Shown here: one piece after another, positions 865 through 32,923 of the stretch | Position numbering within the stretch: position 1 is the stretch's first letter | How the letters are laid out: each line of letters opens with the position of its first letter | Assembly (NCBI GenBank): GCA_002238905.1 | Contig: MPNG01000014.1 | Location: forward strand, 1 to 33,805 | Reading direction: 5' to 3' | DNA: 33,805 nucleotides | Source of the DNA: Alphaproteobacteria bacterium bin98 | Lineage (GTDB): Bacteria; Pseudomonadota; Alphaproteobacteria; Bin98 | Program-made: the position numbers and the translations under genes | The notes under the pieces: generated by a model | What the model saw: only the letters and a program-made list of their open reading frames with translations | Databases searched by the model: none | Told to the model about the DNA's origin: nothing

Positions 865-1386
865 ATGAAATATTTATTATTAATAATGCTTCCAGTGATT
901 TTACTGGGTGCTATTAGCAGTGATAGCCCTGAAGAAAAAGGGAGGCGTGTGATGTCATTAATATCAGAAAAATTTGATAAAGCTTACAAGAATTGTGAAT
1001 TTTCTTTACTCCTAACAGCAACTCAGGAGGTAACTGATTTCTGCCGAAAGGAGTATGGTATAGAGGAGAGATTTATGAGTTTACAGATTAGTCCTTTTGT
1101 GTGCAAAAAAGCTGACGGTGACTGGGTATATCTGTCAGATTCAGAATCTTCTGAATCTTCTGACACACAAGGTTTTCGTGAGTGTCATCTGGTCACCACT
1201 AATCCAGCAGCCCCACATTGGGTTCTTATATTTTTCGTACGACAAGAGTGTTTTCGTGAAATTCAGAAAAAATGTCAGAGGATTCAAAGAAAATTTTCGT
1301 GTAGGCGCACTTTAGAGAAAAAAGTAAATTTTTCTTTTTTGTTGTCCTCCTTTTTTAGTTTTTGTGATCCGAACTCAGTGTTATAG
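865..1386 (+). CDS. Small secreted hypothetical protein
   Basis: The 173-residue product starts with a short signal peptide (MKYLLLIMLPVILLGA, with cleavage likely after GA), so it is probably exported through Sec. The body is not recognised. A serine/acid run sits near residues 91-101, and the segment WVLIFFVRQECFREI faintly resembles the C-terminal module decayed at 17.7-17.96 kb. The last 30 residues are basic and phenylalanine-rich and look like translation of an out-of-frame tail, and coding-like fragments in other frames follow at once. The ORF is therefore probably a truncated or frameshifted remnant of a longer gene. The start ATG follows AGAGAGTG as a weak ribosome site. Confidence 0.6.
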   Translation: MKYLLLIMLPVILLGAISSDSPEEKGRRVMSLISEKFDKAYKNCEFSLLLTATQEVTDFCRKEYGIEERFMSLQISPFVCKKADGDWVYLSDSESSESSDTQGFRECHLVTTNPAAPHWVLIFFVRQECFREIQKKCQRIQRKFSCRRTLEKKVNFSFLLSSFFSFCDPNSVL

Positions 1387-1935
1387 CAGTTGAAATTTTT
1401 GATTATGAAGGTATAAATCCCTCTTTTATCCAAGCAATATACAGGATGAGATCATTTGTGCGATATGGATTACAATTAAAGATGATAGTGCAAAATACGA
1501 TAGAGTGCAGTCTTGGGTTTACTAAGAAAAAGAAGGAGATTTTCTCCATGCCGGGAATGTAAGAGATAAGTTAGATAATACGAAAAAGACTTTTTTGTAT
1601 ATTAATGATTTGGAGAGCTAAGAGGGGCGACCTTTGCTCTTTCCCAGATATTACTGTAATGCCATACGAATATTGTCTGGACGAAACCGAATTGGAGCAG
1701 TATGGTGGAGTGTGTTCTGCGTGCTTATGTGCAACATTATCCATTAACTACGTATAAGATTTTGCATATTTTGTGTAGTGAATGTGATGCAAAAGATATA
1801 CGATTTGTATATAACGATACGCTTTATACACATGCGCCTTACCTTTTTGTGAAATCAGATATTGCAGATGTGAGTTGGGCAGTAGAAGATATAGTGCAGT
1901 ATTTATTGCGATCTGATCGCAATGATTTTAGCTAG
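1368..1935 (+). pseudogene. Broken hypothetical gene, several frameshifts and a nonsense codon
   Basis: Coding-like peptide can be followed across frames. Frame 3 runs from 1368 to about 1442 (EIFDYEGINPSFIQAIY). Frame 2 runs from 1442 to 1618 (QDEIICAIWITIKDD, later TFLYINDLES) with an in-frame TAA at 1523. Frame 3 returns at 1623-1704 (PDITVMPYEYCLDETELEQYG). Frame 1 runs from about 1702 to 1935 (YPLTTYKILHILCSECDAKD and on to a TAG). Each piece begins close to where the previous one fails, as expected from small indels in one ancestral gene of about 190 codons. The 77-codon ORF at 1702 should not be called as an intact gene. The ancestral function is not recognised. Confidence 0.6.
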
Positions 1936-1955
1936 CAATATGATGAAAAATTATG

Positions 1956-1974
1956 TATAATAGGCGGCAAGGGG
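1956..1974 (+). promoter_or_regulatory. Putative -10 box and ribosome binding site of rpoD
   Basis: A perfect TATAAT lies at 1956-1961, and AAGGGG at 1969-1974 sits 4 nt before the rpoD ATG. No convincing -35 box lies 16-18 bp upstream. If used, transcription would start only about 10 nt before the start codon. The ribosome site supports the ATG at 1979, as does the in-frame TAG at 1961-1963. Confidence 0.35.
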
Positions 1975-1978
1975 TTCG

Positions 1979-3742
1979 ATGATCACCGAAGAAAAATCTG
2001 AAATTTTTAAAGATGCAAGTACAGACGATGTTGTAGAGAGTGGCGCTGCTATCGCCGATTCTGACTTTGAAGAAGAAATAGAATCTGAAGTAGAGATAGA
2101 AGCAGAAGTCGAAAAAGAGTCTGGCATTGATGATAGTGCAAAAGAGTCCAAAGGTCGCTTTGTAGATTCTGGAGCAGGGCGTACAGAAGATCCTGTGCGC
2201 ACATATTTGCGAGAAATGGGCAGCGTGCGCTTACTTTCGCGTGCGGAAGAAGTAAGTATTGCAAAGCGTGTAGCTGGGTGTCGTGATGAAGTGTTGCGCC
2301 TTTTAGCACAAAGTGGTGTTGTCTTAAAGATGATAGTAGACGCTAACGTAGAAGTGCAGCGCAATCATCGTGCGATTCGAAACTATGTGGCACTGGCTAC
2401 CAACACGCGTATTGGCGAGCACGAAGGTTTTGGATCTGATGATTTGAATGAGCAAAACTTTGGTGTTCTAGAGCAAGAAGAAAGCATGATGGCGAGCGAA
2501 GATGACGATACCGCAAAGCAGTACTCTCCTTATGTTAACGCTCTTCTTGAAATAGCAGAAAAAGCGCAAGAATTGCTTATACTTTTGCAAGAAAAGGCGA
2601 ACTTGACTGCAGAAGAGAAAGAAGTGTCTGAAAATCTTCAATCTCATATTGATCAACTTCAGTCAGAGATAGCAGAACTGCTTGTTAATACAAAATGGGT
2701 AGTTGCCAAGCAACGAGCAATGACAAAATCCCTCTTGGATTCACACCGTGATATGGTTATTGTGGACCGTCGATTATGCGAGCTTGCAGTGAAAGTGGGT
2801 GTTTCTCGCTCACAGTTTATGACGCTGTATAATTTTGGTGATGGGTTGTTTGGAAAGCCAAAAAACAAAGCTTGGGCAAGTTTTTTAGAAAAAGAAAAAA
2901 CTGCAGTGCAAAAGGCATGTACTGAAATTAATGATATTGCTCAAAAGCATTTTTTAACGCCTGGTAAATTTCGATCCTTAGCAAAATCCATCCGTCAGAT
3001 GGATCGTGCTATGAATGCAGCAAAAACAGAGATGGTAGAGGCAAATTTGCGTCTTGTGATCTCTATTGCTAAAAAATATACGAACAGAGGATTGCAGTTC
3101 TTAGATTTAATCCAAGAAGGCAACATAGGTTTGATGAAAGCTGTTGATAAGTTTGAGTATGAGCGTGGTTTTAAATTCTCCACATACGCAACATGGTGGA
3201 TTCGTCAGGCTATTACGCGTGCTATCGCCGATCAAGCGCGTACCATTCGTATTCCTGTGCATATGATTGAAACAATCAATAAGCTGGTGCGTGTATCCCG
3301 TGCTATGTTGCATGAAATTGGCCGTGAGCCAACACCTGAAGAATTGGCCGAAAAATCTTCTGTTCAGTTGGATAAGGTGAAAAAAGTCTTAAAAATTGCT
3401 AAAGAACCTCTATCCTTGGAATCACCCGTGGGTGATGAAGAAGACAGTGAACTTGGTGATTTTATTGAAGATAAAAGAACAGTAGCGCCTCTTGATTCTG
3501 CTATTCGCAAGAGCTTGACGAGCGTTATTAGTGTCCTTCTTGCGTACCTTGTTCCAAGAGAAGAAAGGGTTGTCCGTATGCGTATGGGAATCAGTGGTCA
3601 AACAGATCACACGCTAGAAGAGGTAGGTCGTCAATTTGATGTGACGCGTGAGCGTATTCGACAAATTGAAGCAAAAGCCATTCGTAAGGTTTCTAATCCA
3701 AAACGTATTGAGCTTCTGCGCGGATTTATTGAAGATCTATAA
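1979..3742 (+). CDS. rpoD: RNA polymerase primary sigma factor RpoD (sigma-70)
   Basis: This is the housekeeping sigma factor, which directs core RNA polymerase to most promoters. The 587-residue protein shows region 1.2 at about 71-105 ([11 protein letters not shown]), a long variable insert, region 2 from about 351 ([44 protein letters not shown]), region 3 ([11 protein letters not shown]) and region 4 with the helix-turn-helix near 544 ([20 protein letters not shown]). The first 70 residues are a very acidic stretch, and I cannot see the usual folded region 1.1. The gene stands alone; dnaG, its common upstream neighbour, is absent and a decayed gene lies there instead. Two tRNA genes follow within 6 nt of its stop. 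Identification is secure. Confidence 0.97.
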
Positions 3743-4011: not shown

Positions 4012-4030
4012 AGAGCACTGCTCTTTGTTT
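4012..4030 (+). terminator. Short hairpin and T-run after the second tRNA
   Basis: AGAGC (4012-4016), loop ACT and GCTCT (4020-4024) are followed by TTGTTT. This could end the rpoD-tRNA transcription unit. The first repeat unit has a weaker version (AGAG 3850-3853, CTCT 3859-3862), so transcription may pass from copy 1 into copy 2. The stem is only 5 bp, so strength is doubtful. Confidence 0.4.
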
Positions 4031-4901
4031 ATGATAACCACTCTAACGGGTTAATGGCTTTTGCTTCTTGGCGTAGCTCTAAATAAAGAAAGGACGGATT
4101 TGTATCTGGAAGTTTTCCTATGGGCTTGCCCGCTATGATATGGTCACCTTCAGACACAAAAATGTAATGCATGCCATAAAGGGCTGTGTAGTGGTTTTTG
4201 TGATGCTTTAAAATGCAAAGGGTATAGGAATACAGTCTCTGTATCCACACCACTTCTGCATCTGTTGGAGAAAAAACTGTAGCACCAGACTGACAACTTA
4301 AAACAATCCCGTCTTTCCTATGCATGGGAGCAGGTAACTTTTTTTTCTCTACACCAAAATGCTTCACAATTGATCCTTTTAATAAGTGAAAGTCATAGGA
4401 GTAAACTCCATCTTTCTTTTGAATTTTTCCTGGCTCAAGAGAAAGTTTCTGCGGAACCTTGATGGCTTTTTTTGAGGAAGGTTTGGTTTGCATTTTTTTT
4501 TGTGTTGTAGGCGGCAGTGTTTTAACCACCTTGGGCGTTGTAGGTTTTTTTGCTGGTGCAGCCTTTTTTGAAGGCTTGACATCTTTAAGAGGTGGATTGA
4601 CCTTTTTTGACTGACTGGGTTTTGGTGCAGTTAATTGCAAAGTGCGTAACTCGGCTTTCTTTTCTGCAATTTTTTTGTTGTATTGTTCTAAATAAAGCTT
4701 GGCGCGTTTTAAGTTGCTTTGAGCCTCCAAGTCTTCGGAATCTCTGGCCTTAACCAATAATGTTTGTACATACTGATAAGTTTTTACAGCTTTCTTTTCA
4801 AGATCTGTGATTTCTCGTGTGATTTCAGCTTGATTATACGGCATGCACGCTTCTTTTGAAAAGGCGCTGCATGCTAAGAAAAATAAAATTACCACGACCA
4901 T
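4029..4901 (-). CDS. EnvC/NlpD-like exported LytM-domain protein, catalytically degenerate
   Basis: The 290-residue protein has a signal peptide (1-16, ending AFSK), a charged coiled-coil segment (about 27-90), a Lys/Pro/Thr-rich linker (91-150) and a LytM/peptidase M23 domain (about 196-289; GATVFSP, YTALYGMHYIFVSEGDHIIAGKPIGKLP, NPLEWLS read in pieces). In active M23 enzymes a His-x-His and a His...Asp bind zinc. Here the final motif reads FLYLELR and the first lacks the Asp, so it should not cut peptidoglycan. EnvC is likewise a non-catalytic activator of division amidases and also sits directly after gpmI in many proteobacteria, which supports this role at the septum. It is shorter than E. 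coli EnvC (about 420). Its start overlaps the upstream gene by 13 nt, with AAGGA before the ATG. Confidence 0.85.
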   Translation of the reverse strand: MVVVILFFLACSAFSKEACMPYNQAEITREITDLEKKAVKTYQYVQTLLVKARDSEDLEAQSNLKRAKLYLEQYNKKIAEKKAELRTLQLTAPKPSQSKKVNPPLKDVKPSKKAAPAKKPTTPKVVKTLPPTTQKKMQTKPSSKKAIKVPQKLSLEPGKIQKKDGVYSYDFHLLKGSIVKHFGVEKKKLPAPMHRKDGIVLSCQSGATVFSPTDAEVVWIQRLYSYTLCILKHHKNHYTALYGMHYIFVSEGDHIIAGKPIGKLPDTNPSFLYLELRQEAKAINPLEWLS

Positions 4902-6427
4902 AATGGGGTCCTTCTAAGAAGATCTTGTATTTGTGGAACTGCCAAAAACGATCCTATGACTGGTGCGATATCGTGGACCTCTCCTGTAATAATAAAAGGG
5001 CGATGACTAAAAGGGCTGTGGGCATACTGCTGTTTAGCCGTAATAATGAGCGTATAACCATGCTTTTTTGCTTTAGCAACAAGGCGTGTGATATTAGCAC
5101 TGCTCTCTTTTTCCTTTTTTAATAACATGTCTTTGGTATAGTGAGTTTTGTGGCTTACCATAATAAAAGGATACCCCTCTGTCATGGCGGTTATGGCGCC
5201 CAGATACACTTCCATATCTTCTGGCAGACTATGTTTTTTTTGAGTAATAATATGCTTTGGGATGCTAGCAAGCGCTTTGTTAATGTCAGAAAACGCTTTC
5301 TGAATGACAGGATTTCTCTCAGGATTCGGACTCATTAAGAGAAATCTTGTGTCGGCATGCACGCCTATATGAGTCCAAAATCGCGTGGTGTCTGTAGGTT
5401 CCCCTTGATAATTATCATCAGCAAAGGCTGCGGCAAGTTTTAGCATATATCTCTTTGTAAAACGCGATAAAAATAAAAAATGGTCAGTTGCGTATTGAAA
5501 TCCTCGATATGCTTCATGTATGTATCTTGGGATCTGATCTGCAAATGTTGGGTTGTTAGTGGTTGCATTTTCCAATATTTGGTCGTGAATGACTTCAGCG
5601 GGACTCTCAAATGTCCTGCTTAGATCAACCTTCCCGCGGATAATAGCTTCGTATGTGTTGAAGATTAAACTCCAATCTGCCTTGTTACAAAAGATTTTGT
5701 ATTTGCTAGTGATAGAGCATATATGGACAAACGGTGCCTTGGTTTGAATCTGATTGAGACAAGTTGTTGCATGAGGCCCAGCTACTGCAGCGTGTAGCTT
5801 AATGCTGACATTATTCTGGTGTAGAAAATCAAATAACATCAGTAAATTATCACACAAGGGTACATTGTCCTTTTCCAACAAATGAAAAATATGTAAAACT
5901 GGCCTTGTTGGCGCTACAGCATCAGTGTATGCACTCTTATCTTTTTTTTCTGCGGTGTATGCGCTATAAGTCCGCTCCACTACTTTTTTATCGCTATGCT
6001 TTTCTGCCATTATGCGGTGATAAATACCATCATCTGTTAAGCTCTCTGCTTGCATGGCCTTGGTGTGTGCGTGACAAAGACCAGCTAATATTTTATAATG
6101 CATACTATCCGCTGCATTACGCATCCTATCCTCTCTAAGTATTAGGTAACTAGTATCATCTTTTGTTACACCTTCTGATAGCATGGGATAATTAGGTCTC
6201 TTGAGCTGATCATATGTTTGTTGAAGGAGACAATCTTCAAAATTCTCATGTTTAGGTTCCAGTAATTCTGGTTGATCTTGACAGTCCTCTAAAGTATAAA
6301 GCAGCAATCGTGTCTCTTTTTGTGCGCTTTTATCTGGTAGTGTCTCTTTTTCTGCTCTGTCGTCCGGTGTTGGTAGCGTAGCAGAGAAAATATAACACGA
6401 TAAGAAAAACAAAATTAGTATGTGCAT
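4889..6427 (-). CDS. Exported GpmI-like pseudoenzyme
   Basis: The 512-residue protein starts with a signal peptide (MHILILFFLSCYIFSA) nearly identical to that of the next upstream gene. From about residue 170 it aligns with GpmI at matching places: VLHIFHLLEKD, KLHAAVAG, HICSITSKY, DHFLFLSRF, YPFIMVSH, GYTLIITAKQQY, DIAPVIGSF. The catalytic elements are gone. LDG of the N-terminal metal site has become LED, the GNSEVGH serine loop is missing, GRxWALDR is lost, FRSDR is replaced, the GHTG metal ligand region is absent, and ADHGNAE has become AKQQYAH. The frame is nonetheless intact over 1.5 kb, which argues for a retained non-catalytic function. It overlaps both neighbours by 13 nt and is presumably co-transcribed with them. 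Its role is unknown. Confidence 0.85.
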   Translation of the reverse strand: MHILILFFLSCYIFSATLPTPDDRAEKETLPDKSAQKETRLLLYTLEDCQDQPELLEPKHENFEDCLLQQTYDQLKRPNYPMLSEGVTKDDTSYLILREDRMRNAADSMHYKILAGLCHAHTKAMQAESLTDDGIYHRIMAEKHSDKKVVERTYSAYTAEKKDKSAYTDAVAPTRPVLHIFHLLEKDNVPLCDNLLMLFDFLHQNNVSIKLHAAVAGPHATTCLNQIQTKAPFVHICSITSKYKIFCNKADWSLIFNTYEAIIRGKVDLSRTFESPAEVIHDQILENATTNNPTFADQIPRYIHEAYRGFQYATDHFLFLSRFTKRYMLKLAAAFADDNYQGEPTDTTRFWTHIGVHADTRFLLMSPNPERNPVIQKAFSDINKALASIPKHIITQKKHSLPEDMEVYLGAITAMTEGYPFIMVSHKTHYTKDMLLKKEKESSANITRLVAKAKKHGYTLIITAKQQYAHSPFSHRPFIITGEVHDIAPVIGSFLAVPQIQDLLRRTPLWSW

Positions 6428-7956
6428 AATGATCGCCCTCTAAAATAGTCTGGTTGTGCAATGCCGTAATGGGCTAATATTGTTGGCGCAATATCTTGGA
6501 GTCCCCCTGATGTGTGTATAAAAGTATGGTTACCAACAACAATAAAAGGAACAAGGTTTGTGGTATGGCTATGGAAGGGTCTTTCATCGCGAGTCATGCA
6601 CTCCGCATTTCCGTGATCAGCGGTAATAATCACCGTGTATCCATTCTTGTGTGCTACAGAATAAATCCAGTCGATAGCTTCATCCACAGAGGTAATGCCT
6701 TCTTTTGCTACCTGCATATTTCCAGTGTGTCCAACAATATCTGGTGCTGCGTAGTTCACCATAATGAAGCCATACTTTTGTGTTATGGCGTTAATTACAA
6801 GTTCTGTTACCTCATTTGTTGGGTGGGGGTTATAACATTCTTCGCTATGATTAGATTTTGCTATAAAAACATCTGTATTATCAGGCAAATCTTTATGACT
6901 ATCAAAAAATACAGTAACATGCGCCTTCTTTTCTGATTCAGCAATCCGTGCTTGTCGTATACCATGTGCTGATAAAATATAACCAAGTGGTGCGGGCAGT
7001 TGATTATCGCCAAACATGTAAGGCATCCTTAAGGTATGGCTATAAGGGCACATACAAAGCCAATTGCGTTCTGTGCTCTGTGGCGCTTTTGGATAGTTTT
7101 CGTCAGAGAGAGCTGTGGCGATTTGCACCATACGGTCTGAACGAAAATTTAAAAACAAAAAATGGTCCTTGGCGTAATCAAATCCTTTATATGTTGTATG
7201 TACGTGTGGTGGTGTGAGTTTCACAGCGTTTGTTCCTTCTGCAATGATTTCATCGGTTGTAACAAAGGTGGGAGCCTCTGCATGAATAATAGCTTTGTAT
7301 GTTTTGGAGGTTTTCGCCCAATCTTTGTTGCGATCAAGGGCCCATGTCCTGCCTGTGATAGAACATATATTGACAAAAGATGTTTGTTTTTTGATCGTTT
7401 CAAGAAATGTATAAGCGCTTTTTGGTTCTGAATCACATCCATCCAATACAGCGTGTAGTTTAATGGTGATATTTTGTTTGTATAGTAACAATGATATTTT
7501 CAGTAAATGGTCAATATCAGCGTGTACAGCGCCGTCTGAAAGCAAAGAAAAAACATGCACGATTCCGTTGGAATTTAATACGGAATCAGTGAATGTGCGC
7601 CAAATGTCTTTTTTTGCGAAGGATTCATCATCAAGTGCCTCTGATATTTGTTTATGTATGCTGTCATGTACTGATCCAGCACCTATAGTGAGGTGCCCAA
7701 CCTCAGAGTTTCCTTGTAGTCCTGCTCTTAATCCTACTGCCTCACCTGATGCGTTGAGTGTGGCATGCTTTTTTTGCAAAAAGTTGGTGATACAAGGAGC
7801 AGTTTCTGAAGTAATAGCGCTCTCTTTGAATCCGCCTTCTGGTGGCATGCCGAAACCATCTAAAACAATACACATAAGTTTGTGTGTAGGTTCCTGTATT
7901 GGTGGCTCAGCAGAGAAAATATAACACGATAAGAAAAATAAAATTACCAACGGCAT
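6415..7956 (-). CDS. Exported 2,3-bisphosphoglycerate-independent phosphoglycerate mutase paralogue
   Basis: The 513-residue protein is a clear GpmI paralogue with an added signal peptide (MPLVILFFLSCYIFSA) and a short linker before the enzyme starts at about residue 26. GpmI interconverts 3- and 2-phosphoglycerate with two Mn ions and a phosphoserine. The copy keeps the metal-site Asp33 (VLDGFG), the nucleophile Ser84 in GNSEVGH, VHAD, GRTWALDR, NFRSDR, SEKKAHV, PDIVGHTG, ADHGNAE and the late SHTT histidine. One substrate-site change is seen: the Arg of DGRD is Cys175. The linker and signal imply that the enzyme acts outside the cytoplasm, in the periplasm or beyond, which is unexpected for glycolysis. 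The start overlaps the upstream stop by 13 nt, with AGGA before the ATG. Confidence 0.93.
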   Translation of the reverse strand: MPLVILFFLSCYIFSAEPPIQEPTHKLMCIVLDGFGMPPEGGFKESAITSETAPCITNFLQKKHATLNASGEAVGLRAGLQGNSEVGHLTIGAGSVHDSIHKQISEALDDESFAKKDIWRTFTDSVLNSNGIVHVFSLLSDGAVHADIDHLLKISLLLYKQNITIKLHAVLDGCDSEPKSAYTFLETIKKQTSFVNICSITGRTWALDRNKDWAKTSKTYKAIIHAEAPTFVTTDEIIAEGTNAVKLTPPHVHTTYKGFDYAKDHFLFLNFRSDRMVQIATALSDENYPKAPQSTERNWLCMCPYSHTLRMPYMFGDNQLPAPLGYILSAHGIRQARIAESEKKAHVTVFFDSHKDLPDNTDVFIAKSNHSEECYNPHPTNEVTELVINAITQKYGFIMVNYAAPDIVGHTGNMQVAKEGITSVDEAIDWIYSVAHKNGYTVIITADHGNAECMTRDERPFHSHTTNLVPFIVVGNHTFIHTSGGLQDIAPTILAHYGIAQPDYFRGRSLCTY

Positions 7957-9425
7957 AATGATTTTCCTGTAAAATGTTCTGGTGGTGTAATACCAAAATA
8001 TGATAATACTGTTGGAGCGACATCACTGAGGCCTCCTGATGTGTGTGTGAAGGTATGTTGACCAACAACAATAAAAGGGACAGGATTTGTAGTATGGCTT
8101 GTGAAAGGTTTTCCTTGGTGGGTGATGCATTCCGCGTTTCCATGGTCAGCGGTAATGAGCACAGTATAGTTATGCTCTTCAGCTGTTCTTACAAGATGGT
8201 CCAGCCCTCTATCAACACAAGCAATGCCGCTTTGCGCTAACTCCATATCACCGCTATGTCCTAAAATATCTGAGGCCGCATAATTTATTAAAATAAAAGG
8301 TACTCCTTCTTCTATGGTGTTAATCGCATGGCGTGTAATACTATTTGTTGGCAAAGAGGCAGAGTAGTGCTCTTCTTGATTAGGGTAAGAATCTGCAATG
8401 AGTTTTTTTGTATTGCCAGGCAAAGGTTTTTGGTTGTCAAAAAAGAAGGTGACATGCGCTTGCTTTTCTGACTCTGCGATACGAGCTTGAGCGATGCCAT
8501 GCTCTTCTAAAATATACCCAAGCGGGTTGAGGCGTGCAGGGTCAGCAAAAAGATAAGGCATCATTAAGGTGTTGTGATAAGGGCGCATACAAAGCCAAGC
8601 GCGGGCTGTATTTTGTGGAGCCCCTCCTTGATAATTTGCGTCAGAAAGTGCTGTGGCGATTTGCCACATGCGGTCTGACCGTATTCCTAAAAACAAAAAA
8701 TGATCAACATCATGTTGAAAGCCTTGATAGTCTCGGTGTACGTGTGGATCTAGATACTCTTCTGTTTCCAAGCAGTCTGTTACCACTTCTTCCGTTTCAT
8801 CAAATTTGGATCCTTGTGCATGAATAATCATGTTGTACGCTTTTAAGATTTTTTCCCAATTTTGTGTGCGGTCTAAAGCCCAATCTCTTCCTATGATAGA
8901 ACATATATTGATAAATGGAGTTTCTTTTTTTATGGTTTCTAAAAATGTATATGCGCTTCCTGGTGCTGAGTCACGACCATCCAAAATAGCATGCAGTTTG
9001 ATGGTGACGTTTTGTTTGTGCAGCAGTTGAGTGATGCTCAATAAGTGTTGCAGGTCCGCATGAATAGCGCCTTTTGAGAGCAAGGAAAAGATATGTAAAA
9101 CTCCATTGTTTTGATGCACGTTATGCAAAAGAGTAGCCCATTCTTTTTTTGTGGCTATCGAACCATCTTCGATAGCTGACGACATTATTTTGTGCGCGCT
9201 GCTATAGATTGCACCTGCACCAATAGTTAGATGACCAACTTCCGAGTTACCTTGTAATCCTTCCAGCAAACCTACTGCCGCACCTGATGCGTTAAGTTGC
9301 ACATGTTTGTGTTGAGAAAGTGAACTGACAAAAGGGGCAGTTTCCGGAGTGATGGCGCTTTCTTGTCCAGATTGTGGAACCCCCCATCCGTCTAAAATGC
9401 ACAGCAACAGTCTTTGATTTTCCAT
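7944..9425 (-). CDS. gpmI: 2,3-bisphosphoglycerate-independent phosphoglycerate mutase (cytosolic)
   Basis: This is the conventional enzyme of lower glycolysis and gluconeogenesis, with no signal peptide. At 493 residues it is near the usual 510. Visible motifs are CILDGWG with metal-site Asp12, GNSEVGH with nucleophile Ser61, IHAD, LDGRDSAP, GRDWALDR, IRSDR, SEKQAHVTFFF, SDILGHSG, ADHGNAE and TSHTT. All residues expected for metal, phosphoserine and substrate binding are present. It is first in a four-gene minus-strand unit, so it probably has the promoter of the set, in the 72-bp gap shared with the divergent membrane gene. The stop lies inside the start of the exported paralogue (13-nt overlap), which suggests translational coupling. 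Confidence 0.96.
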   Translation of the reverse strand: MENQRLLLCILDGWGVPQSGQESAITPETAPFVSSLSQHKHVQLNASGAAVGLLEGLQGNSEVGHLTIGAGAIYSSAHKIMSSAIEDGSIATKKEWATLLHNVHQNNGVLHIFSLLSKGAIHADLQHLLSITQLLHKQNVTIKLHAILDGRDSAPGSAYTFLETIKKETPFINICSIIGRDWALDRTQNWEKILKAYNMIIHAQGSKFDETEEVVTDCLETEEYLDPHVHRDYQGFQHDVDHFLFLGIRSDRMWQIATALSDANYQGGAPQNTARAWLCMRPYHNTLMMPYLFADPARLNPLGYILEEHGIAQARIAESEKQAHVTFFFDNQKPLPGNTKKLIADSYPNQEEHYSASLPTNSITRHAINTIEEGVPFILINYAASDILGHSGDMELAQSGIACVDRGLDHLVRTAEEHNYTVLITADHGNAECITHQGKPFTSHTTNPVPFIVVGQHTFTHTSGGLSDVAPTVLSYFGITPPEHFTGKSLCRW

Positions 9426-9497: not shown

Positions 9498-10112
9498 ATG
9501 AATTACCCATTGCTTTCTTTTTGTCTTTGTGCTGAAGGTGTTGTTCCATCTATCATCGAAAATCAGGGGCACGCAGGGATCCCAATGATTTTTGTGCTGA
9601 GCCCTATATTTATCTTTTTATTGCTGCCGACCATCGTTTGGAAGATATATGTGGCGCGTAAAACTTTACAATCTCCCAAACATTTATTGATTAAGTCAAT
9701 ATCATTATCTGCTGGTATAAGCACATTCGTGGGTATTCCCAGTATTTGGGGTTTTCTTTTTTGTGCACAGACTGTTTTGTTACATTTTTTGCGCTGGGTG
9801 ACTAATGGATCGGAACTGTTTCAAGCACCTTTTAATATAACCATACAAGCGTTTTTATTTTCGACTTTTGTCGCACCAAATTTTAATGAAAAAGTTGCTA
9901 TGATTGTCACTTTCATCATGTTGTTGGTGCCTATCTTCTATGGTACACTCCTGGTGGAAGAGACAATTTTGTGGCGCGCGCTTTACAAAAAAGACAAGCT
10001 TGGGGCAATCAGAAAATTTTTGTGGCAAACACACCTTTATCTTTTTACAGGTTTAGCACTGATAGCCTTTTTAACCATGATTGCTCTTCTGGTTGCTCAA
10101 AGATCTTCATGA
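9498..10112 (+). CDS. Hypothetical multi-pass membrane protein
   Basis: The 204-residue protein has about four hydrophobic segments (roughly 30-50, 68-92, 110-150 and 175-200) and no recognised domain. A TATAAT at 9487-9492 ends only 5 nt before this ATG, so either the mRNA is nearly leaderless or translation starts later, for example at the Met that begins MIFVLSP (about 9585). The next gene shares the pattern of its first 50 residues (a short acidic start, then a PM[IL] followed by a hydrophobic segment and a basic end), so the two may be old tandem duplicates. It is divergent from gpmI. Function unknown. Confidence 0.75.
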   Translation: MNYPLLSFCLCAEGVVPSIIENQGHAGIPMIFVLSPIFIFLLLPTIVWKIYVARKTLQSPKHLLIKSISLSAGISTFVGIPSIWGFLFCAQTVLLHFLRWVTNGSELFQAPFNITIQAFLFSTFVAPNFNEKVAMIVTFIMLLVPIFYGTLLVEETILWRALYKKDKLGAIRKFLWQTHLYLFTGLALIAFLTMIALLVAQRSS

Positions 10113-15189: not shown

Positions 15190-15299
15190 AGTATAAAATG
15201 TTAAAGGTGAGTAAATCCGAAGGTTGTCTAAATTAGTAAGATTGATGTATGATTGTTTTGTTATCATATATACTACACATTTGAATAAAGGAATTGAAT

Positions 15300-15941
15300 A
15301 TGTCTATGCAATTACTACTCTTAACTTGTTTGTACGTCGGGCCTTGCTTAGTCTTGAATTGCGCTGTAAGAGACAGCAATTTAGTAGAAAGTCCTGCAGA
15401 ACTAACAAGAGATCAAGCATACCAGAACAGAGTATTGTTTCTGGAGAATTTGTCATTTGAAGATAGAGTCCAACAATCTTCGTGGTGGGCATTAGATCAA
15501 TTAGGTGTGGAGACAGAGTGTAAGGAGAAGATTCTAGATGCAATGAGCACTTTTCATATAGAGAGTAGTGGTGATGTAACGTTATCTGTGGCCAATAACG
15601 TATACTGGATAGTGGCAGAATACTACAAAAAAAAATACTGTCCAGCCGATCCAACCACTCCAATCGATAAAAAGATGCAAGATGAGCATATTGATAACAT
15701 GAGAAGAAAAAATTTTCGTATTAATATGCCAATTTTTTATTATGCTTTTTCTTTGCTAAGACAAGAGAAATCGATGCGGCCTCAGAGGGTCGAATTTATA
15801 TGCAAAGCGTCTAAAAGTCTTTTGTTTGCTTTACAATTTTTCTGCACTCATTCGGATTCAATGCCAGCAGAGTTACGCTACTCTATTTTTCAGAAACTTA
15901 TGGGTTTTTACAACGAAGAAGGAGCGAACGCAAGGCAATGA
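15300..15941 (+). CDS. Secreted hypothetical protein, SSWW family (copy 1)
   Basis: The ATG at 15300 is chosen because it matches the start of the paralogue at 18851 and follows AAAGGA; a TTG 6 nt earlier is less likely. The 213-residue protein has a signal peptide (MSMQLLLLTCLYVGP onward) and a helical body. It shares with the paralogue the segments SSWWALDQL, EYYKKKYCPAD, TTPID, EHIDNM and NMPxFYYAFS. The last of these fits the L-x-x-P-x-[LF]-x-x-A-[FL] pattern seen across the block. The protein is followed by a gene of the SNAA family, as is its paralogue, and the spacers between them are similar. Function unknown. Confidence 0.85.
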   Translation: MSMQLLLLTCLYVGPCLVLNCAVRDSNLVESPAELTRDQAYQNRVLFLENLSFEDRVQQSSWWALDQLGVETECKEKILDAMSTFHIESSGDVTLSVANNVYWIVAEYYKKKYCPADPTTPIDKKMQDEHIDNMRRKNFRINMPIFYYAFSLLRQEKSMRPQRVEFICKASKSLLFALQFFCTHSDSMPAELRYSIFQKLMGFYNEEGANARQ

Positions 15942-16056
15942 TCTGCAATATTTTGCTAGTTTCAAAATAAAATTCGATGGGGTGAATTGCTTTTCTTTAT
16001 AAATGAGTATAAAATTTAGGATGATGTTTTTTATTCTGAAATTTTGAGTGTTATTT

Positions 16057-16662
16057 ATGTTTATTTTATTACTAATTTTTTTACATATTTTCCCGTTATC
16101 AAGCAATGCTGCATTAGCAGAGTGTTCGTGTTACGAAGAACCAAACAAGCTTTTGCAACAGCATCAGAGCATGTTTCAAGAGAGTGATGGGAGTTTTCTG
16201 CTCAAAGCTCCATATACTGTTGCCCAGCTCCGTTTTGCATATGATTATTTTGAAGATCTCTGTCATAGCGTCTCTAGCGTACTGTTATCGATCCAAGCAG
16301 ATTTGCGTCCAAACGCTCAAGGCTATTATAATTGGAAAAACGCTTCTCCGACTGAGAGGTGGCTCCTAATGGAAGGTATGCCAACTGATCCTGAAGATTC
16401 AGCATTTCATTTGAATATACCTACCCTATCTAAGGCTTTATCAGATATACCCAGTCAAATTTATAGCATAAATCCCGATCCTGCTGATTTATTAGACTAT
16501 ATCAATGATTTAGCCATCCACCAGGATCTCTTATTGGCTTGCAAATCTTTGTATCAGAGCGATTGGGAGTTGGCTTACAAAAACTATTATTATTGGTATT
16601 TTAGAGTCCACCCCAACAGAGCCAAGATATGTAACGCTGTGTATGTTAAGTATGCTAAATAA
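16057..16662 (+). CDS. Secreted hypothetical protein, SNAA family (copy 1)
   Basis: Start at ATG 16057 is chosen by alignment with three paralogues that all begin MFI; an upstream GTG at 16048 is also in frame. The 201-residue product has a signal peptide ending SSNAA, then a conserved body: QxMFQ, PYTV, DPED, FHLNIPTLSKAL, IHQDLLLACKSLY, DWELAY, YWYF. The C-terminal half is predicted helical. Downstream (16692 onward) lies a decayed extension that other copies also carry, so this protein is probably the N-terminal part of a once longer one. Copies follow at 17004, 17964 and 19653. Function unknown. Confidence 0.85.
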   Translation: MFILLLIFLHIFPLSSNAALAECSCYEEPNKLLQQHQSMFQESDGSFLLKAPYTVAQLRFAYDYFEDLCHSVSSVLLSIQADLRPNAQGYYNWKNASPTERWLLMEGMPTDPEDSAFHLNIPTLSKALSDIPSQIYSINPDPADLLDYINDLAIHQDLLLACKSLYQSDWELAYKNYYYWYFRVHPNRAKICNAVYVKYAK

Positions 16663-17003
16663 TTCATTTTTCCTAATAACAGGGGGGTAGCGATCTTGAA
16701 CAGAGTGGTCATACTTTTATTATCAGTCTGAATCTGTGCTATATATCCAAGGGCCTTTATGGGTTAGATGAAGAGAGAGTAATGGCTATGTACGCGTAAT
16801 CAAGAAAGTAGTTATCCAGATAAGTATTCAAGAGTCTATCAACAAAAGAATGGTAAATTAGTGCCATAAATTATTATGAGATTGTCATCATCAATGTGTG
16901 AAAAATACAGTGGAGTTTGAGTGATCACAATGTATTGCTTTTCTTTGTAAATGAGGGTAAAAGGTTTGAGGATGTTTTAATTCCGAAATTTGGAGTGCTA
17001 TTT
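16663..17003 (+). pseudogene. Decayed C-terminal module after SNAA copy 1
   Basis: No intact gene. From 16692 one frame reads DLEQSGHTFIISLNLCYISK and on to VMAMYA before a TAA at 16797; after a frameshift a second piece reads PDKYSRVYQQKNGKLV; a third reads SDHNVLLFFVNEGKRFEDV and runs into the next gene's start. The same pieces occur after SNAA copies 2 and 3. I read this as the remains of a C-terminal domain that was once joined to the SNAA protein, and as part of the tandem repeat unit. Confidence 0.65.
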
Positions 17004-17639
17004 ATGTTTATTTTATTACTAATTTTTTTACACATTTTTCCGCGATCAAGCAATGCCGCATTATCAGAGTATTCGTGTGACGAAGAGCACAACAAGATTT
17101 TGAAACGGACTCAGATAATGTTTCAACAGAGTGAGGAGAGTTTTCCACTCAAAGAAGGTCCATATACTGTTGCCGATCTCATTTGTGCAGACTCTTATTT
17201 TAGAGCTATCTATAATAGAGGTATCCCTAGCGACCGACTGCTATTGAGCCAAGAAGATTTGTGTGCAAACGATAAAATCTATGATAGTTTGCAAGACGTT
17301 TGTCTTGTTCACCAGTGTCCCCCAATGGAAAATATTCCAGATGATCCTGAAGATCCAGAATTTCATTTGGATATACCTACCCTAGCTAAGGTTCTAGAAG
17401 AAGCAAGCCATCAAATCGGTTGCATAAATCCCTATCCTGCTGATGAAAATCTCTTAAGAAGCATCGAGGATTTAAGCATCCACCAGGATCTTTTATTGGC
17501 TTGCAAAGCTTTGTATGAGGGCAATTGGGACTTGGCTTGCAAAAAATATTGTTATTGGTATTCTTGTGTCCACCTCAACAGATTTTTTTATCTCCCCCCC
17601 AAGAGATTCAAGAGATTGCGCGCTGTGTATGCTAAATAA
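17004..17639 (+). CDS. Secreted hypothetical protein, SNAA family (copy 2)
   Basis: The frame is open from 16917, but the first 29 residues of that version are the tail of the decayed module upstream; the true start is ATG 17004, aligned with the paralogues and preceded by GGAG. The 211-residue product has a signal peptide ending SSNAA, then QIMFQQSEESFPLKEGPYTV, DPEDPEFHLDIPTLAKVL, IHQDLLLACKALY, NWDLA and YWYS. Compared with copies 1 and 3 it has extra basic residues at the end (FYLPPKRFKR). Function unknown; exported by inference. Confidence 0.85.
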   Translation: MFILLLIFLHIFPRSSNAALSEYSCDEEHNKILKRTQIMFQQSEESFPLKEGPYTVADLICADSYFRAIYNRGIPSDRLLLSQEDLCANDKIYDSLQDVCLVHQCPPMENIPDDPEDPEFHLDIPTLAKVLEEASHQIGCINPYPADENLLRSIEDLSIHQDLLLACKALYEGNWDLACKKYCYWYSCVHLNRFFYLPPKRFKRLRAVYAK

Positions 17640-17963
17640 TTCACTTTTCCTAATGACAGGGGGGTAGCGATCTTGAAGAGTGGTAATACTTTTATTGTCC
17701 GTCTGAATCTGTACTATATATCCAAGGGTCTTGTATGGGTGATATGAAAGAGAGAGTAATGGCTATGTACGCGTAATCAAGAAAGTAGTGCTCCAGATAA
17801 GTATTCAAAAATCTATCAACAAAAGAATGGTAAATTAGTGCCAGAAAATCATCAATGTGTGAAAATACAGTGGAGTTTGAGTTATCATAATGTATCTCTT
17901 TTCTTTGTAAATGAGGGTGAAAGGTTTGAGGGTGTTTTTAATCCGAAATTTGAAGTGTGATTT
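17640..17963 (+). pseudogene. Decayed C-terminal module after SNAA copy 2
   Basis: This is the second copy of the remnant. The best preserved piece is about 17792-17961, an open stretch that reads SKIYQQKNGKLVPENHQCVK, then WSLSYHNVSLFFVNEGERFE, ending NPKFEV and TGA just before the next start. Earlier pieces (NTFIVRLNLYYISKGL, GDMKERVMAMYA) lie in other frames with stops between. The coding quality shows this was a real protein domain. Confidence 0.65.
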
Positions 17964-18647
17964 ATGTTTATTGTATTACTAATTTTTTCACAGATTGTGC
18001 TGCTATCCAGTAATGCCACAGCAGCAAAATATTCCTGTGATGAAAAACAAAATCATATTTGGAGGCAGACTCAGACAATGTTTCAACAGAGTAAGGAGAG
18101 TTTTCCACTCAAAGAAGGTCCATATACTGTTGGCGATATCATGCGTGTAGATTGTTATTTTACAGATCTCTGTAACAGCTATATCCCTGGCACTCTAGGG
18201 CTATTGAGCCAAGTAGATTTGCGTCCAAACGATCAAATCTATGATAATTTGGAAGACGCTTTGCGTGATACCATGTTTCTCCAACAGGAAAAGACTCCAG
18301 AATTTCATTTGGATATACCTACCCTAGCTCAGGCTTTAGAAGAGATACCCAGTCAAATCTATAGCATGCATCCCGATCCTTCTGATGTAGAGCTCTTAAA
18401 AAACATCGAGCCTTTAAGTATCCACCAGGAGCTCTTATTAGCTTGCAAAGCTTTGTATGAGAGCGATTGGGATTTGGCTTACCAACACTATGATTATTGG
18501 TATTTTTGTGTCACACCAAGAGATTCAAGAGATTGTGCGCTGTGTAGCTTACTAATGACAGGGGGGGATCTTGAACAGAGTGGTCATACTTTTATTATCA
18601 GTCTGAATCTGTGCTATATATCCAAAGGCCTTGTATGGGTCATATGA
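17964..18647 (+). CDS. Secreted hypothetical protein, SNAA family (copy 3, with part of the C-terminal module)
   Basis: The 227-residue protein has a signal peptide (MFIVLLIFSQIVLLSSNATA) and the family body: MFQQSKESFPLKEGPYTV, EFHLDIPTLAQAL, IHQELLLACKALY, DWDLAYQHYDYWYF. Unlike copies 1 and 2 it lacks the stop after the tail and reads on through LLMTGGDLEQSGHTFII to CYISKGLVWVI, so it still carries the first third of the downstream module in frame. This is direct evidence that the module belonged to the protein. The loop before the motif is shorter than in its paralogues. Function unknown. Confidence 0.85.
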   Translation: MFIVLLIFSQIVLLSSNATAAKYSCDEKQNHIWRQTQTMFQQSKESFPLKEGPYTVGDIMRVDCYFTDLCNSYIPGTLGLLSQVDLRPNDQIYDNLEDALRDTMFLQQEKTPEFHLDIPTLAQALEEIPSQIYSMHPDPSDVELLKNIEPLSIHQELLLACKALYESDWDLAYQHYDYWYFCVTPRDSRDCALCSLLMTGGDLEQSGHTFIISLNLCYISKGLVWVI

Positions 18648-18822
18648 AAGAGAGATTAATGGCTATGTACGCGTAGTGCTCCAGATAAGCATTCAAGCGT
18701 CTATCAACAAAAGAGTGGTAAATTAGTACCAGAAATTATTATTAGATTGTAATCATCAATGTGTGAAAAATACAGTGGAGTTTGAGTTATCATAATGTAT
18801 TGTTTTTTTTGATGAATGAGGA
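18648..18822 (+). pseudogene. Decayed remainder of the C-terminal module after SNAA copy 3
   Basis: Sequence homologous to 16755-16960 and 17730-17925 continues here with deletions, including the AAAGAGAGATTAATGGCTAT and CAACAAAAGAGTGG segments, but without a usable frame. The similarity stops near 18822, just before the next gene's leader. No other gene is seen. Confidence 0.6.
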
Positions 18823-18850
18823 TACCTTATATTAAAAAAAGGAATTTAAT

Positions 18851-19504
18851 ATGTCTATGGGATTAATACTACTACTCTTAACTTGTTTGCACGCTGGGCC
18901 CTTGCTCTTGAATTGCGCTGCAATAGGCGATTTAGAAATGAACGAAGGAGTAGGGTTAACAAAATCGCAAGCATTATTGAAAAGAAAAGCATTTCTATCG
19001 AATTTGTCAGATGCAGAGTTCGCTGACCAATCTTCTTGGTGGGCATTAGATCAATTAGATTTGGATCAGGAATACAGGGACAATCTTCTGAGTAAAATGA
19101 CTCGAGTGGATATAGAAATGGGTTTTGATCACGCATGTGATATAGCAGACTCAGCATACATGATACTGGGAGAATACTACAAAAAAAAATACTGTCCAGC
19201 CGATCTAACCACTCCAATTGATGAAAAAATGAAAGAAGAGCATATTGATAACATGACAAGAAAAAACTTTCGTCTTAATATGCCTCTTTTTTACTATGCT
19301 TTTTCTTTTCTAAAGAAAAGGTCTGATTTATACTCTATGCATGATAGTAGGAAATTTTTTGACAAAGCGTATAAGCACCTCTTGTTGTCTTTCTACCTTT
19401 TCTGCTTGAAGAGTCTGTCATCAACGGAAGCGGAGGCATACTATTATATATTTCAGGCATTAATGGGTTTTCGCACCAGAACAGAGTTGAATGTAGGGCA
19501 ATGA
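18851..19504 (+). CDS. Secreted hypothetical protein, SSWW family (copy 2)
   Basis: The 217-residue paralogue of the gene at 15300 has AAAGGAA before its ATG. It has a signal peptide (MSMGLILLLLTCLHAGP onward) and the shared segments SSWWALDQLD, EYYKKKYCPAD, EHIDNM and NMPLFYYAFSFL, while the N-terminal third and the C-terminal helices have diverged strongly. That pattern of conserved core and variable ends suggests diversifying change. It again precedes an SNAA-family gene, and the short spacer starts with the same sequence as after copy 1, so a two-gene unit was duplicated. Confidence 0.85.
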   Translation: MSMGLILLLLTCLHAGPLLLNCAAIGDLEMNEGVGLTKSQALLKRKAFLSNLSDAEFADQSSWWALDQLDLDQEYRDNLLSKMTRVDIEMGFDHACDIADSAYMILGEYYKKKYCPADLTTPIDEKMKEEHIDNMTRKNFRLNMPLFYYAFSFLKKRSDLYSMHDSRKFFDKAYKHLLLSFYLFCLKSLSSTEAEAYYYIFQALMGFRTRTELNVGQ

Positions 19505-19652
19505 TCTGCAATTTCTTGCTAGTTCAAAATGGAATGCGATGGGGCAATGTATATATTGCTTTTTTTTGAGAATAAATTACAATAAATAAAAGTATTGCTT
19601 CATTCATGGAAGCCACACCTTTTTTTGATAAGCCAGCTATGGAGAGCTGTTT

Positions 19653-20384
19653 ATGTTTATTTTATTGCTAATTTTTTCACACATTTTTCCGCTATCAAGC
19701 AATGCCGCATCAGAAGAGCCTTTCTGTAAAAAAAAGCTTTTGGCTCAGGCTAAGATGATGTTTGAACAGAGTGAGGAGGATTTTCCACTCAAAGAGGCCC
19801 CATATACTATTAATGACCTCTTGAAGACAGACTGTTATTTTACAGGTCTCTATGCTAAAGGTGTCCCTTTCACCACCATAGGGCTAGCGAGCCAAGTAGA
19901 TAAAGTCAATTTGGGTTCAAACTATAGAATCTATCCTAATTTGAGAGAAGCTGTTCGTGCTTTGACTTTTCCCCCAATGGCAAAGATTCCAGCTAACCCT
20001 GAAGATCCAGAATTTCATTTGGATATACCTACCCTAGCTAAGGTTTTAGCAGAGTTGCACAATCAAATCGCTAGAACCTATCTTGCTCCCGATTTGAAAG
20101 AGCTCTTAAAAAACAAAGAGCTCTTAAAAAACATCGAGCCTTTAAGTATCCACCAGGATCTCTTAGTGGCTTGCAAATCTTTGTATAAGGGCGATTGGGA
20201 TTTGGCTTACCAACACTATGATTATTGGTATTTTTGGTTACCGATGGGCATGAAGGACCGGATGGACAGACAGATGGGCACGAGCCCGGAGGTACAGAGT
20301 CTTAATGTATCAGTTTCCTATTCAGATTTTAGTGCCTACATGCTTAAAAAGCATAATACAGAGGGAGCTCTTATGAACAAATGA
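19653..20384 (+). CDS. Secreted hypothetical protein, SNAA family (copy 4)
   Basis: The 243-residue protein has a signal peptide ending SSNAA and the family segments MMFEQSEEDFPLKEAPYT, DPEDPEFHLDIPTLAKVL, IHQDLLVACKSLY, DWDLAYQHYDYWYF. An exact 18-bp duplication inside gives KELLKN twice. After YWYF it has its own tail, ending in VSVSYSDFSAYML and TEGALMNK, which may correspond to the last part of the module that is decayed behind the other copies. Its stop overlaps an ATG (ATGA) of a short remnant at 20381. Function unknown. Confidence 0.85.
   Translation: MFILLLIFSHIFPLSSNAASEEPFCKKKLLAQAKMMFEQSEEDFPLKEAPYTINDLLKTDCYFTGLYAKGVPFTTIGLASQVDKVNLGSNYRIYPNLREAVRALTFPPMAKIPANPEDPEFHLDIPTLAKVLAELHNQIARTYLAPDLKELLKNKELLKNIEPLSIHQDLLVACKSLYKGDWDLAYQHYDYWYFWLPMGMKDRMDRQMGTSPEVQSLNVSVSYSDFSAYMLKKHNTEGALMNK
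20097..20132 (+). repeat. Exact 18-bp tandem repeat inside SNAA copy 4
   Basis: Two identical 18-bp units (20097-20114 and 20115-20132) encode KELLKN twice. It is absent from the paralogues, so it is a recent in-frame slip. Confidence 0.9.
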
Positions 20385-21630: not shown

Positions 21631-22152
21631 TCATAATATGACACAGATGGTCATGTTGGACTCGCTCCGAACATTATAATAATATTCATACCACAAATTA
21701 TATTCTTTTTTAGCACATGCCTCATTACCGTCAAGCAATAAATATCGTGTAGACAATAAGAGATGATGATGAGATCGGAGGCTTTTTTCTTTTTCTGGGT
21801 CCCAAAAGGTTTTAGATAAATCTCGGAAGTGTTGATTCATTAGATCAAAAGCCTGACAGAGGAGATGTGCATCCAAATGCAATTTCTTTTTTTTTGGGTC
21901 CATTGTGGGATTTTGTTGTGGATGGCTGATGTCAGTTGTCTTACAGACCGTTTGAAGATTCTTGTATGTAGATTCGGCAAGGAGATGTAACTCATCAAGC
22001 GTGAGTGTTGTTGCTGTATTATATTTTTGCAAACCCTGCCAAACTATGTCAGCTTGTTCTGTATAGAAATATTCGAGACTATTGCAGGCTATGTGAGCCC
22101 TGGAAGCTCCGTAAGATTGAGCACATATGAAAAATAATAATATTAATGTCAT
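21631..22152 (-). CDS. Small secreted hypothetical protein
   Basis: The start is ATG 22152, because AAGGAAGG lies just upstream; a GTG seven codons earlier would place that ribosome site inside the gene. The 173-residue product has a signal peptide (MTLILLFFICAQSYGA), a helical body, the segment KLHLDAHLLCQAFDLM, which matches the family L-x-x-P-x-L-x-x-A-F motif with His for Pro, and a C-terminal pair HHLLLSTRYLLLDG and AKKEYNLWYEYYY. It is on the opposite strand from its neighbours. Function unknown. Confidence 0.8.
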   Translation of the reverse strand: MTLILLFFICAQSYGASRAHIACNSLEYFYTEQADIVWQGLQKYNTATTLTLDELHLLAESTYKNLQTVCKTTDISHPQQNPTMDPKKKKLHLDAHLLCQAFDLMNQHFRDLSKTFWDPEKEKSLRSHHHLLLSTRYLLLDGNEACAKKEYNLWYEYYYNVRSESNMTICVIL

Positions 22153-22204
22153 AAAAAAATCCTTCCTTTTCACATATTACTTATACCATCATTTCATACT
22201 ATTT

Positions 22205-22649
22205 TTATTTTATAAAACAACTGATTCTTATACAAATTTGATCTATGGTTAAAAATGTGAAACAGTATTTGCGAATAACGATATCAATCGCGCTTAAGAT
22301 GTATATGGCAGAATATACATTGCAATCAAAAGCGTCTAAATTTATATTATAATATTTAAGACAAAATATTCTACATAAGATTTCTAACTCTCCATCACAA
22401 AAATACTTGCAAGAGAATAAAGATCTGTCGTATAGAGTTTGTTTTGAAAGTATCTGAGATGTGATGTTGTGGTTTAATATCATGAATTAAGAAACGATTC
22501 TCTAATTGCGTGAAAGCATAAAAGAGGGCAGGTACCTTAAGATTCAAGATTGGATGATTAGGGTTAGATAATGCGAGTTGAAATTCGAAATATTTTATAT
22601 AGTTTTCTTTCTGAATTTTCCAACAGAAATATACTCTAAGTCTACGCAT
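22205..22649 (-). pseudogene. Broken secreted-family gene
   Basis: Read leftward, the first frame (from 22649) gives NPNHPILNLKVPALFYAFTQ and LENRF, the family motif, and fails near 22480. The frame from 22483 continues with SLFSCKYFCDGELEILCRIF and CLKYYN, the C-terminal helix pair. A frameshift near 22480 therefore splits one gene. No signal peptide is seen upstream, so the 5' end is lost too. Confidence 0.65.
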
Positions 22650-22977
22650 TGAGTAAAAATATTACAGGGAGGTAGTGATCTTGAACAGAGTGGTAATACT
22701 TTTATTATTAGTCTGAATCTGTGTTACAGTGTATCCAAGGGTCTTGTATAGGTCATGTGAAGGCGAGAGTAATGGCTATGTACGCGTGAACAGTACATCC
22801 TTTCAGTTATTGAAAAATTTTATTATTTTGTAATGGCGATACTACCTAAGAAGACAAACATGAGTCTTGAAGATAATTGATAAATCGATACCTTTTTGCG
22901 ATAAAGGTGAGTGTGCCAACATTGAAAACAGTGCATTGATATTGTGCGCACAATGTAGATCTGGAGGTGTATTTTCT
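22650..22977 (+). repeat. Partial copy of the SNAA downstream module, then leader of next gene
   Basis: The stretch 22663-22787 repeats the sequence found after the SNAA genes (GATCTTGAACAGAGTGGT, AATCTGTGTTACAGTGTATC, GTAATGGCTATGTACGCGTG). It lies 3-6 kb from the other copies with no SNAA gene attached. It reads LEQSGNTFIISLNLCYSVSK before a stop. The rest of the gap holds GGAGGTG at 22963-22969, the ribosome site of the next gene. Confidence 0.75.
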
Positions 22978-23532: not shown

Positions 23533-23537
23533 ACACT

Positions 23538-23870: not shown

Positions 23871-23902
23871 TTAGAAAAATAAACCATATAATTTATATTG
23901 AG

Positions 23903-32833: not shown

Positions 32834-32923
32834 AATTTCCTCTTACTTTGAAAATAACATTTCTATTAAAAAAAACAATAATACGCGTATAAGAACCTCT
32901 TATCTGCTTGCCCTAGAAGGAAT

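What the first reader, a model, noticed from the sequence alone, without database searches (positions are those of the whole stretch)
4889..9425. Signal-peptide capture by tandem duplication of gpmI at an overlapping gpmI/envC junction
Three GpmI-type genes stand in a row before an EnvC-like gene. At each junction the stop of the upstream gene overlaps the next ATG by exactly 13 nt (TTATG...TAA), and each downstream protein starts with the same kind of peptide (M-x3-ILFFL[AS]C..FS), also similar in DNA. Only the first GpmI lacks it. The simplest path is an ancestral gpmI-envC pair with this overlap, in which unequal exchange joined the envC signal-peptide codons to a duplicated gpmI, then repeated. 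This would show a glycolytic enzyme turned into a secreted family in two steps.
Basis: partly seen in the sequence, partly recalled or inferred. Interest (0 to 1): 0.9.

Follow-up and report, generated by a model that had tools for sequence, protein, structure and literature searches.

The report
Glycolytic enzyme gene duplicated into exported copies
In one poorly known alphaproteobacterium, a sugar-metabolism gene (gpmI) was tandemly duplicated next to its usual neighbour envC, and the copies start with an export signal that resembles envC's, so the array is a readable example of how an internal enzyme can become a family of exported proteins, one still enzyme-like and one stripped of its active site.

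Summary
Three GpmI-type genes (gpmI1 7944-9425, gpmI2 6415-7956, gpmI3 4889-6427, all minus) precede an EnvC-like M23 gene (4029-4901). Each junction overlaps by exactly 13 nt, and gpmI2, gpmI3 and envC start with short hydrophobic leaders that gpmI1 lacks.

The three GpmIs form one clade. The gpmI-envC pair is the usual arrangement in class relatives. gpmI2 and envC share an 18-nt leader block found nowhere else in 95% of the genome, and each is the other's best non-GpmI leader match among 393. "Then repeated" needs correcting. The gpmI3 leader is gpmI2's (42/48 nt), not envC's (28/48), and synonymous distances put gpmI3 nearest gpmI2. So: one capture, then duplication of the leader-bearing gene.

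gpmI1 is the only cytosolic phosphoglycerate mutase found. gpmI2 keeps all metal and nucleophile residues but one substrate arginine is Cys. gpmI3 has lost the whole active site, yet its frame is intact and dN/dS is below 1.

New context: this genome has many tandem families of secreted-looking proteins whose leaders are alike at DNA level while mature parts are not. Export, donor direction and function remain inferences.

The parts
7944..9425 (-). gpmI1: leaderless cofactor-independent phosphoglycerate mutase, all catalytic residues present
   Evidence: ORF; TIGR01307 387.6 bits against cut-off 330.65; aligned to 1ejj
6415..7956 (-). gpmI2: GpmI with N-terminal leader; metal and Ser residues kept, Arg of the DGRD motif changed to Cys
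   Evidence: TIGR01307 370.6 bits; alignment to 1ejj; model matches iPGM structures, 1ejj TM 0.78
4889..6427 (-). gpmI3: leader-bearing, highly diverged GpmI paralogue that has lost the active-site motifs (pseudoenzyme)
   Evidence: no Pfam or NCBIfam hit; 32% identity to gpmI2; profile match over 163 columns, E 1.8e-5
4029..4901 (-). EnvC-like M23/LytM protein with leader
   Evidence: Peptidase_M23 45.9 bits; best NCBIfam family is EnvC, 41.4 bits, below its cut-off of 270
7944..7956 (-). 13-nt overlap gpmI1/gpmI2 (ATGCCGTTGGTAA)
   Evidence: sequence
6415..6427 (-). 13-nt overlap gpmI2/gpmI3 (ATGCACATACTAA)
   Evidence: sequence
4889..4901 (-). 13-nt overlap gpmI3/envC (ATGGTCGTGGTAA)
   Evidence: sequence
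7909..7956 (-). gpmI2 leader codons 1-16
   Evidence: predicted helix 2-15
6380..6427 (-). gpmI3 leader codons 1-16, 42/48 nt identical to gpmI2
4854..4901 (-). envC leader codons 1-16
7930..7947 (-). 18-nt block GTAATTTTATTTTTCTTA in gpmI2, shared only with envC
4875..4892 (-). the same 18-nt block in envC
7965..7968 (-). AGGA (Shine-Dalgarno-like) inside the codons of gpmI1's conserved C-terminal TGKS motif, 8 nt before the gpmI2 ATG
   Evidence: sequence; function inferred

Best explanation
Ancestrally this bacterium had one gpmI directly upstream of and overlapping envC. A tandem duplication with one breakpoint inside the envC leader codons and the other at the start of gpmI gave gpmI - [envC leader::gpmI] - envC. 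That single event would create the leader and copy the 13-nt overlap. The leader-bearing unit was then duplicated again, giving gpmI2 and gpmI3. gpmI1 stayed the cytosolic glycolytic enzyme. gpmI2 is probably an exported AlkP-superfamily phosphatase or mutase with altered substrate binding. gpmI3 is probably an exported pseudoenzyme under relaxed but continuing selection. Translation of each copy is probably coupled to the gene before it. Shown: gene order, overlaps, common ancestry, leader similarity, residue losses. Inferred: breakpoints, direction of transfer, export, biochemical roles.
For: One clade against 53 other GpmIs. gpmI-envC adjacency in most class relatives read. The 18-mer is unique to the gpmI2 and envC starts. 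Local DNA score of the gpmI2 leader: gpmI3 36, envC 21, next 16; of the envC leader: gpmI2 21, gpmI3 16, next 14 of 393. The same 13-nt overlap at three junctions is rare elsewhere. dS gpmI1-gpmI2 1.19, gpmI2-gpmI3 1.23, gpmI1-gpmI3 1.83; pN/pS below 1 for all pairs. Enolase is present and His_Phos_1 (dPGM fold) absent, so gpmI1 is the only cytosolic PGM candidate found. Leaders without K/R occur on proteins exported by definition here: TamA/Omp85-like, TpsB-like, RlpA-like.
Against: Outside the 18-nt block the gpmI2 and envC leaders differ (7/21 over codons 10-16), and an unrelated leader ties on ungapped identity. The tree position of gpmI3 rests on a very long branch, and shared residues only lean to gpmI2 (40 against 27 sites). 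No fusion breakpoint is recognisable in the gpmI2 linker. No genome of the same order is available. Export was not tested, and no SignalP-type predictor was available.
Confidence: 0.66

Rival explanations
1. gpmI2 got its leader from another secreted gene (this genome has hundreds), and later recombination between neighbouring junctions made the envC and gpmI2 leaders alike, so envC was recipient rather than donor.
For: Leaders here look prone to exchange or homogenisation: large leader-DNA clusters (87, 43, 38 and 22 genes) join genes without detectable mature homology, and leader codons are more conserved than mature codons. gpmI2/gpmI3 leaders have dS 0.24 against 1.23 for the bodies.
Against: No other gene has a comparable leader match to gpmI2 (next score 16 against 21). 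The identical overlap at each junction is explained for free by duplication of the old gpmI/envC junction.
Confidence: 0.2
2. The leader resemblance between gpmI2 and envC is convergence: uncharged I/L/F/C-rich leaders are common here and the shared 18 nt is chance.
For: Several unrelated leaders read LILFFxC or similar; ungapped identity to a C50 leader ties with envC.
Against: Exact 18-mer shared only by these two nearby genes; envC ranks first among about 391 non-GpmI leaders and the reverse also holds; the overlap geometry is the same.
Confidence: 0.09
3. The copies are not exported: the N-terminal segments are uncleaved anchors or untranslated, and gpmI2/gpmI3 are ordinary cytosolic paralogues or decaying genes.
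For: The leaders are short and lack K/R; no expression data.
Against: Intact frames of 512-513 codons at synonymous distances above 1 with pN/pS below 1; uncharged leaders occur on proteins that must be exported here; the leaders resemble that of the neighbouring EnvC-like protein.
Confidence: 0.05

Closest known systems
Cofactor-independent phosphoglycerate mutase GpmI (TIGR01307; structure 1EJJ)
   Same: gpmI1 and gpmI2 pass the family cut-off; fold and metal-site residues kept
   Different: gpmI2 carries a leader and an Arg to Cys change in the DGRD motif; gpmI3 has lost the active site and all family-model recognition
gpmI-envC neighbour pair of Proteobacteria
   Same: same order and strand as in most alphaproteobacterial relatives read
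   Different: two extra leader-bearing gpmI copies lie between gpmI and envC; none of 386 class genomes sampled showed two full-length GpmI matches in the listed output
Phytoplasma sequence-variable mosaic (SVM) secreted proteins, Pfam PF12113 (PMC8026896)
   Same: a presumed signal-peptide motif shared by different secreted proteins; compare the leader clusters of this genome
   Different: unrelated lineage and sequences; here one family has an identifiable housekeeping ancestor; no effector role is shown
Moonlighting surface glycolytic enzymes (e.g. PMC6646928, abstract seen)
   Same: glycolytic enzyme outside the cytoplasm
   Different: those are the same intracellular proteins found at the surface; here dedicated paralogues carry leaders

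Membership tests
GpmI / iPGM | family model score above curated cut-off (TIGR01307, 330.65 bits) | tested here: met
   gpmI1 387.6, gpmI2 370.6; gpmI3 no hit, so gpmI3 is not filed as a GpmI enzyme
GpmI / iPGM | metal ligands and catalytic Ser (1EJJ numbering from memory: D12, S62, D403, H407, D444, H445, H462) | tested here: met
   present in gpmI1 and gpmI2; not met for gpmI3, e.g. TADHGN replaced by TAKQQY
GpmI / iPGM | substrate-binding Arg of DGRD (R153) | tested here: not met
   kept in gpmI1; Cys in gpmI2 (DGCDSEP); motif deleted in gpmI3
GpmI / iPGM | 3PG/2PG mutase activity | not testable with these tools
   needs enzyme assay
EnvC murein hydrolase activator | NCBIfam NF008644 above cut-off (270 bits) | tested here: not met
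   41.4 bits, but best-scoring family; M23 domain and position after gpmI fit; called EnvC-like only
Sec signal peptide | N-terminal hydrophobic segment ahead of a soluble mature protein | tested here: met
   12-14 hydrophobic residues at codons 2-16, helix predicted for gpmI2
Sec signal peptide | positively charged n-region | tested here: not met
   no K/R; but 156 of 393 leader-like starts here lack it, including TamA-, TpsB- and RlpA-like proteins
Sec signal peptide | actual export and cleavage | not testable with these tools
   needs fusion or proteomics
SVM-type secreted families (phytoplasma) | match to PF12113 | tested here: not met
   gpmI2, gpmI3 and envC-like gave no PF12113 hit; may work like, not a member

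The most novel reading that the evidence does not exclude
The gpmI array is the one readable case of a genome-wide process in this lineage: leader cassettes are captured or exchanged by recombination at gene starts, kept alike at DNA level, while the mature parts behind them diverge until unrecognisable. Even core enzymes can be recruited into an expanding exported repertoire, first as an enzyme and then as a pseudoenzyme.
Probability: 0.3. Interest if true: 0.75.

Novelty: new variant of a known kind. Interest (0 to 1): 0.52.

Why it matters
Gaining an export signal after duplication is a textbook route to new functions, but the event is rarely still visible. Here the likely donor, the junction and two later stages (active-site-bearing copy, pseudoenzyme) lie side by side. 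Because GpmI is a well-understood enzyme, the array also calibrates how fast exported paralogues diverge in a genome where many other secreted families have no recognisable ancestor.

Tried and rejected
Looked for relatives: the order holds only this genome, and the one genome-contig scan gave only distant GpmIs. Looked for other class genomes with exported or duplicated GpmI: 386 searched; the few with 2-3 matches have weak best matches or fragmented draft assemblies and were not followed further. The gpmI3 structure prediction was too poor to use (pLDDT 44), so no fold search was made with it. A fusion breakpoint in the gpmI2 linker or gpmI1 5' region was looked for by eye and not found. Tested whether other leader/no-leader paralogue pairs with a housekeeping ancestor exist: the filtered list showed none as clear; most looked like mis-called starts or orphan families. 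Rejected assembly artefact: the copies are 58% and about 30% identical. Rejected simple pseudogene decay: intact frames at dS above 1. Literature searches found no report of an exported GpmI paralogue; open-access papers only.

Full report
OBSERVATION. On the minus strand lie gpmI1 (9425-7944, 493 aa), gpmI2 (7956-6415, 513 aa), gpmI3 (6427-4889, 512 aa) and an M23 gene (4901-4029, 290 aa). Each start codon sits in a TTATG within the last codons of the gene before it, and the upstream stop follows so that every overlap is 13 nt. In a crude gene call over 1.50 Mb of the genome, only 5 of 552 close same-strand pairs overlap by 13 nt, a count that includes these junctions. gpmI1 starts MENQRLLLCILDGWG with an in-frame stop two codons upstream. 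The other three genes start with a 16-codon hydrophobic leader.

WHAT THE GENES ARE. gpmI1 and gpmI2 pass the TIGR01307 cut-off and align end to end with solved iPGMs. gpmI1 has every motif I checked. gpmI2 has all of them except the arginine of DGRD, which is Cys. The gpmI2 model is of medium confidence (pLDDT 65.5) and matches iPGM structures best (1ejj TM 0.78). gpmI3 hits no Pfam or NCBIfam model, is about 32% identical to gpmI2, matches a GpmI profile built without the window genes (E 1.8e-5), and lacks the metal, nucleophile and substrate motifs. The last gene is EnvC-like: EnvC is its best NCBIfam family but far below cut-off. Enolase is present and the His_Phos_1 family absent, so gpmI1 is the only cytosolic phosphoglycerate mutase found. 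Residue numbers and roles for 1EJJ are from my own knowledge.

ORGANISM. RpoD is closest to alphaproteobacterial RpoDs among plasmid records, and the gpmI relatives searched are of the same class. No other genome of the order is held.

ANCESTRY. In a tree of 56 GpmIs the three window proteins form one group (96/93; gpmI1+gpmI2 99/96), with the warning that gpmI3's branch is extreme. Synonymous distances are gpmI1-gpmI2 1.19, gpmI2-gpmI3 1.23 and gpmI1-gpmI3 1.83. Sites shared by only two of the three lean the same way (gpmI2=gpmI3 40, gpmI1=gpmI3 27). Together with the shared leader and linker, this favours gpmI3 as a copy of gpmI2. In class relatives an EnvC-type coiled-coil gene usually follows gpmI directly, with varied spacing, so the pair is ancestral and the array is the novelty. 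Among 386 class genomes no other listed match suggested two full-length GpmIs.

LEADERS. gpmI2/gpmI3 share 42 of 48 nt; gpmI2/envC 30; gpmI3/envC 28. Against 393 leader-like starts in 95% of the genome, gpmI2's best local DNA matches are gpmI3 (36) and envC (21), then 16; envC's best are gpmI2 (21) and gpmI3 (16), then 14. The exact 18-mer GTAATTTTATTTTTCTTA occurs only at gpmI2 and envC. So the leaders are probably homologous, but the evidence is one short block plus position. The leaders lack K/R, yet so do those of TamA-, TpsB- and RlpA-like proteins of this genome, so this is not a sign against export here.

MECHANISM. One tandem duplication joining envC leader codons to a gpmI start explains leader and overlap together; a second duplication of the leader-bearing unit gives gpmI3. 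AGGA within gpmI1's conserved TGKS codons lies 8 nt before the gpmI2 ATG, so translational coupling is likely (inference). All pairs have pN/pS below 1, weakest for gpmI3, so the copies are kept, not decaying. I think gpmI2 acts as an exported phosphatase or altered mutase and gpmI3 as a binding or scaffold protein; neither is tested.

WIDER CONTEXT. My rough count gives 44 paralogue families of three or more with many leader-like starts, 318 genes. Leader DNA clusters of 87, 43, 38 and 22 genes join genes of which 72-93% of sampled pairs show no mature similarity (single linkage at a fixed score, so chaining is possible). In pairs with alignable mature parts, synonymous-codon identity in the leader stays near 0.8 while that of the mature part falls from 0.89 to 0.62. 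By family the leader exceeds the mature part in 24 of 37 (Wilcoxon p 0.009, sign test p 0.10). gpmI2/gpmI3 fit: 12 of 13 leader codons against 69 of 117 body codons (Fisher p 0.025 on a slightly different count). Homogenising recombination or nucleotide-level constraint could both cause this. The pattern recalls phytoplasma SVM proteins (PMC8026896) but is not that family.

LOCUS HISTORY. Contig C15 holds, after dnaG, a piece 91% identical to window 1667-2044 joined with 8 bp of overlap to a piece 91% identical to window 9130-9421. This is what remains if a copied dnaG(3')-rpoD-envC-gpmI block lost its middle. It shows large duplication and deletion at this very locus.

VERDICT. A real and well-read observation. 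The capture scenario is the best explanation, with one capture and then copying rather than two captures; donor direction and export remain open.

Noticed in passing
genome contig C15:46447-47106 (L003/L037) against window 1667-2044 and 9130-9421: Remnant of a duplicated dnaG3'-rpoD-envC-gpmI block with its interior deleted, joined at an 8-bp overlap, 91% identical.
   Followed up: partly
whole genome; e.g. window 865-1386, 15294-20384, 21631-24424, 32303-33771: Many tandem families of leader-bearing orphan proteins with leaders alike at DNA level but unlike mature parts.
   Followed up: partly
genome contig C50:7993-80700 minus (pieces L115, L188-L191): One uninterrupted ORF of 24,232 codons (72.7 kb) with a leader-like start.
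   Followed up: no
L036:7965-11124: A Patescibacteria MAG carries two leaderless gpmI genes in tandem after pgk and eno, so tandem gpmI is not unique to this genome.
   Followed up: no
window 9498-10112: Divergently oriented predicted membrane protein with no Pfam hit next to gpmI1.
   Followed up: no
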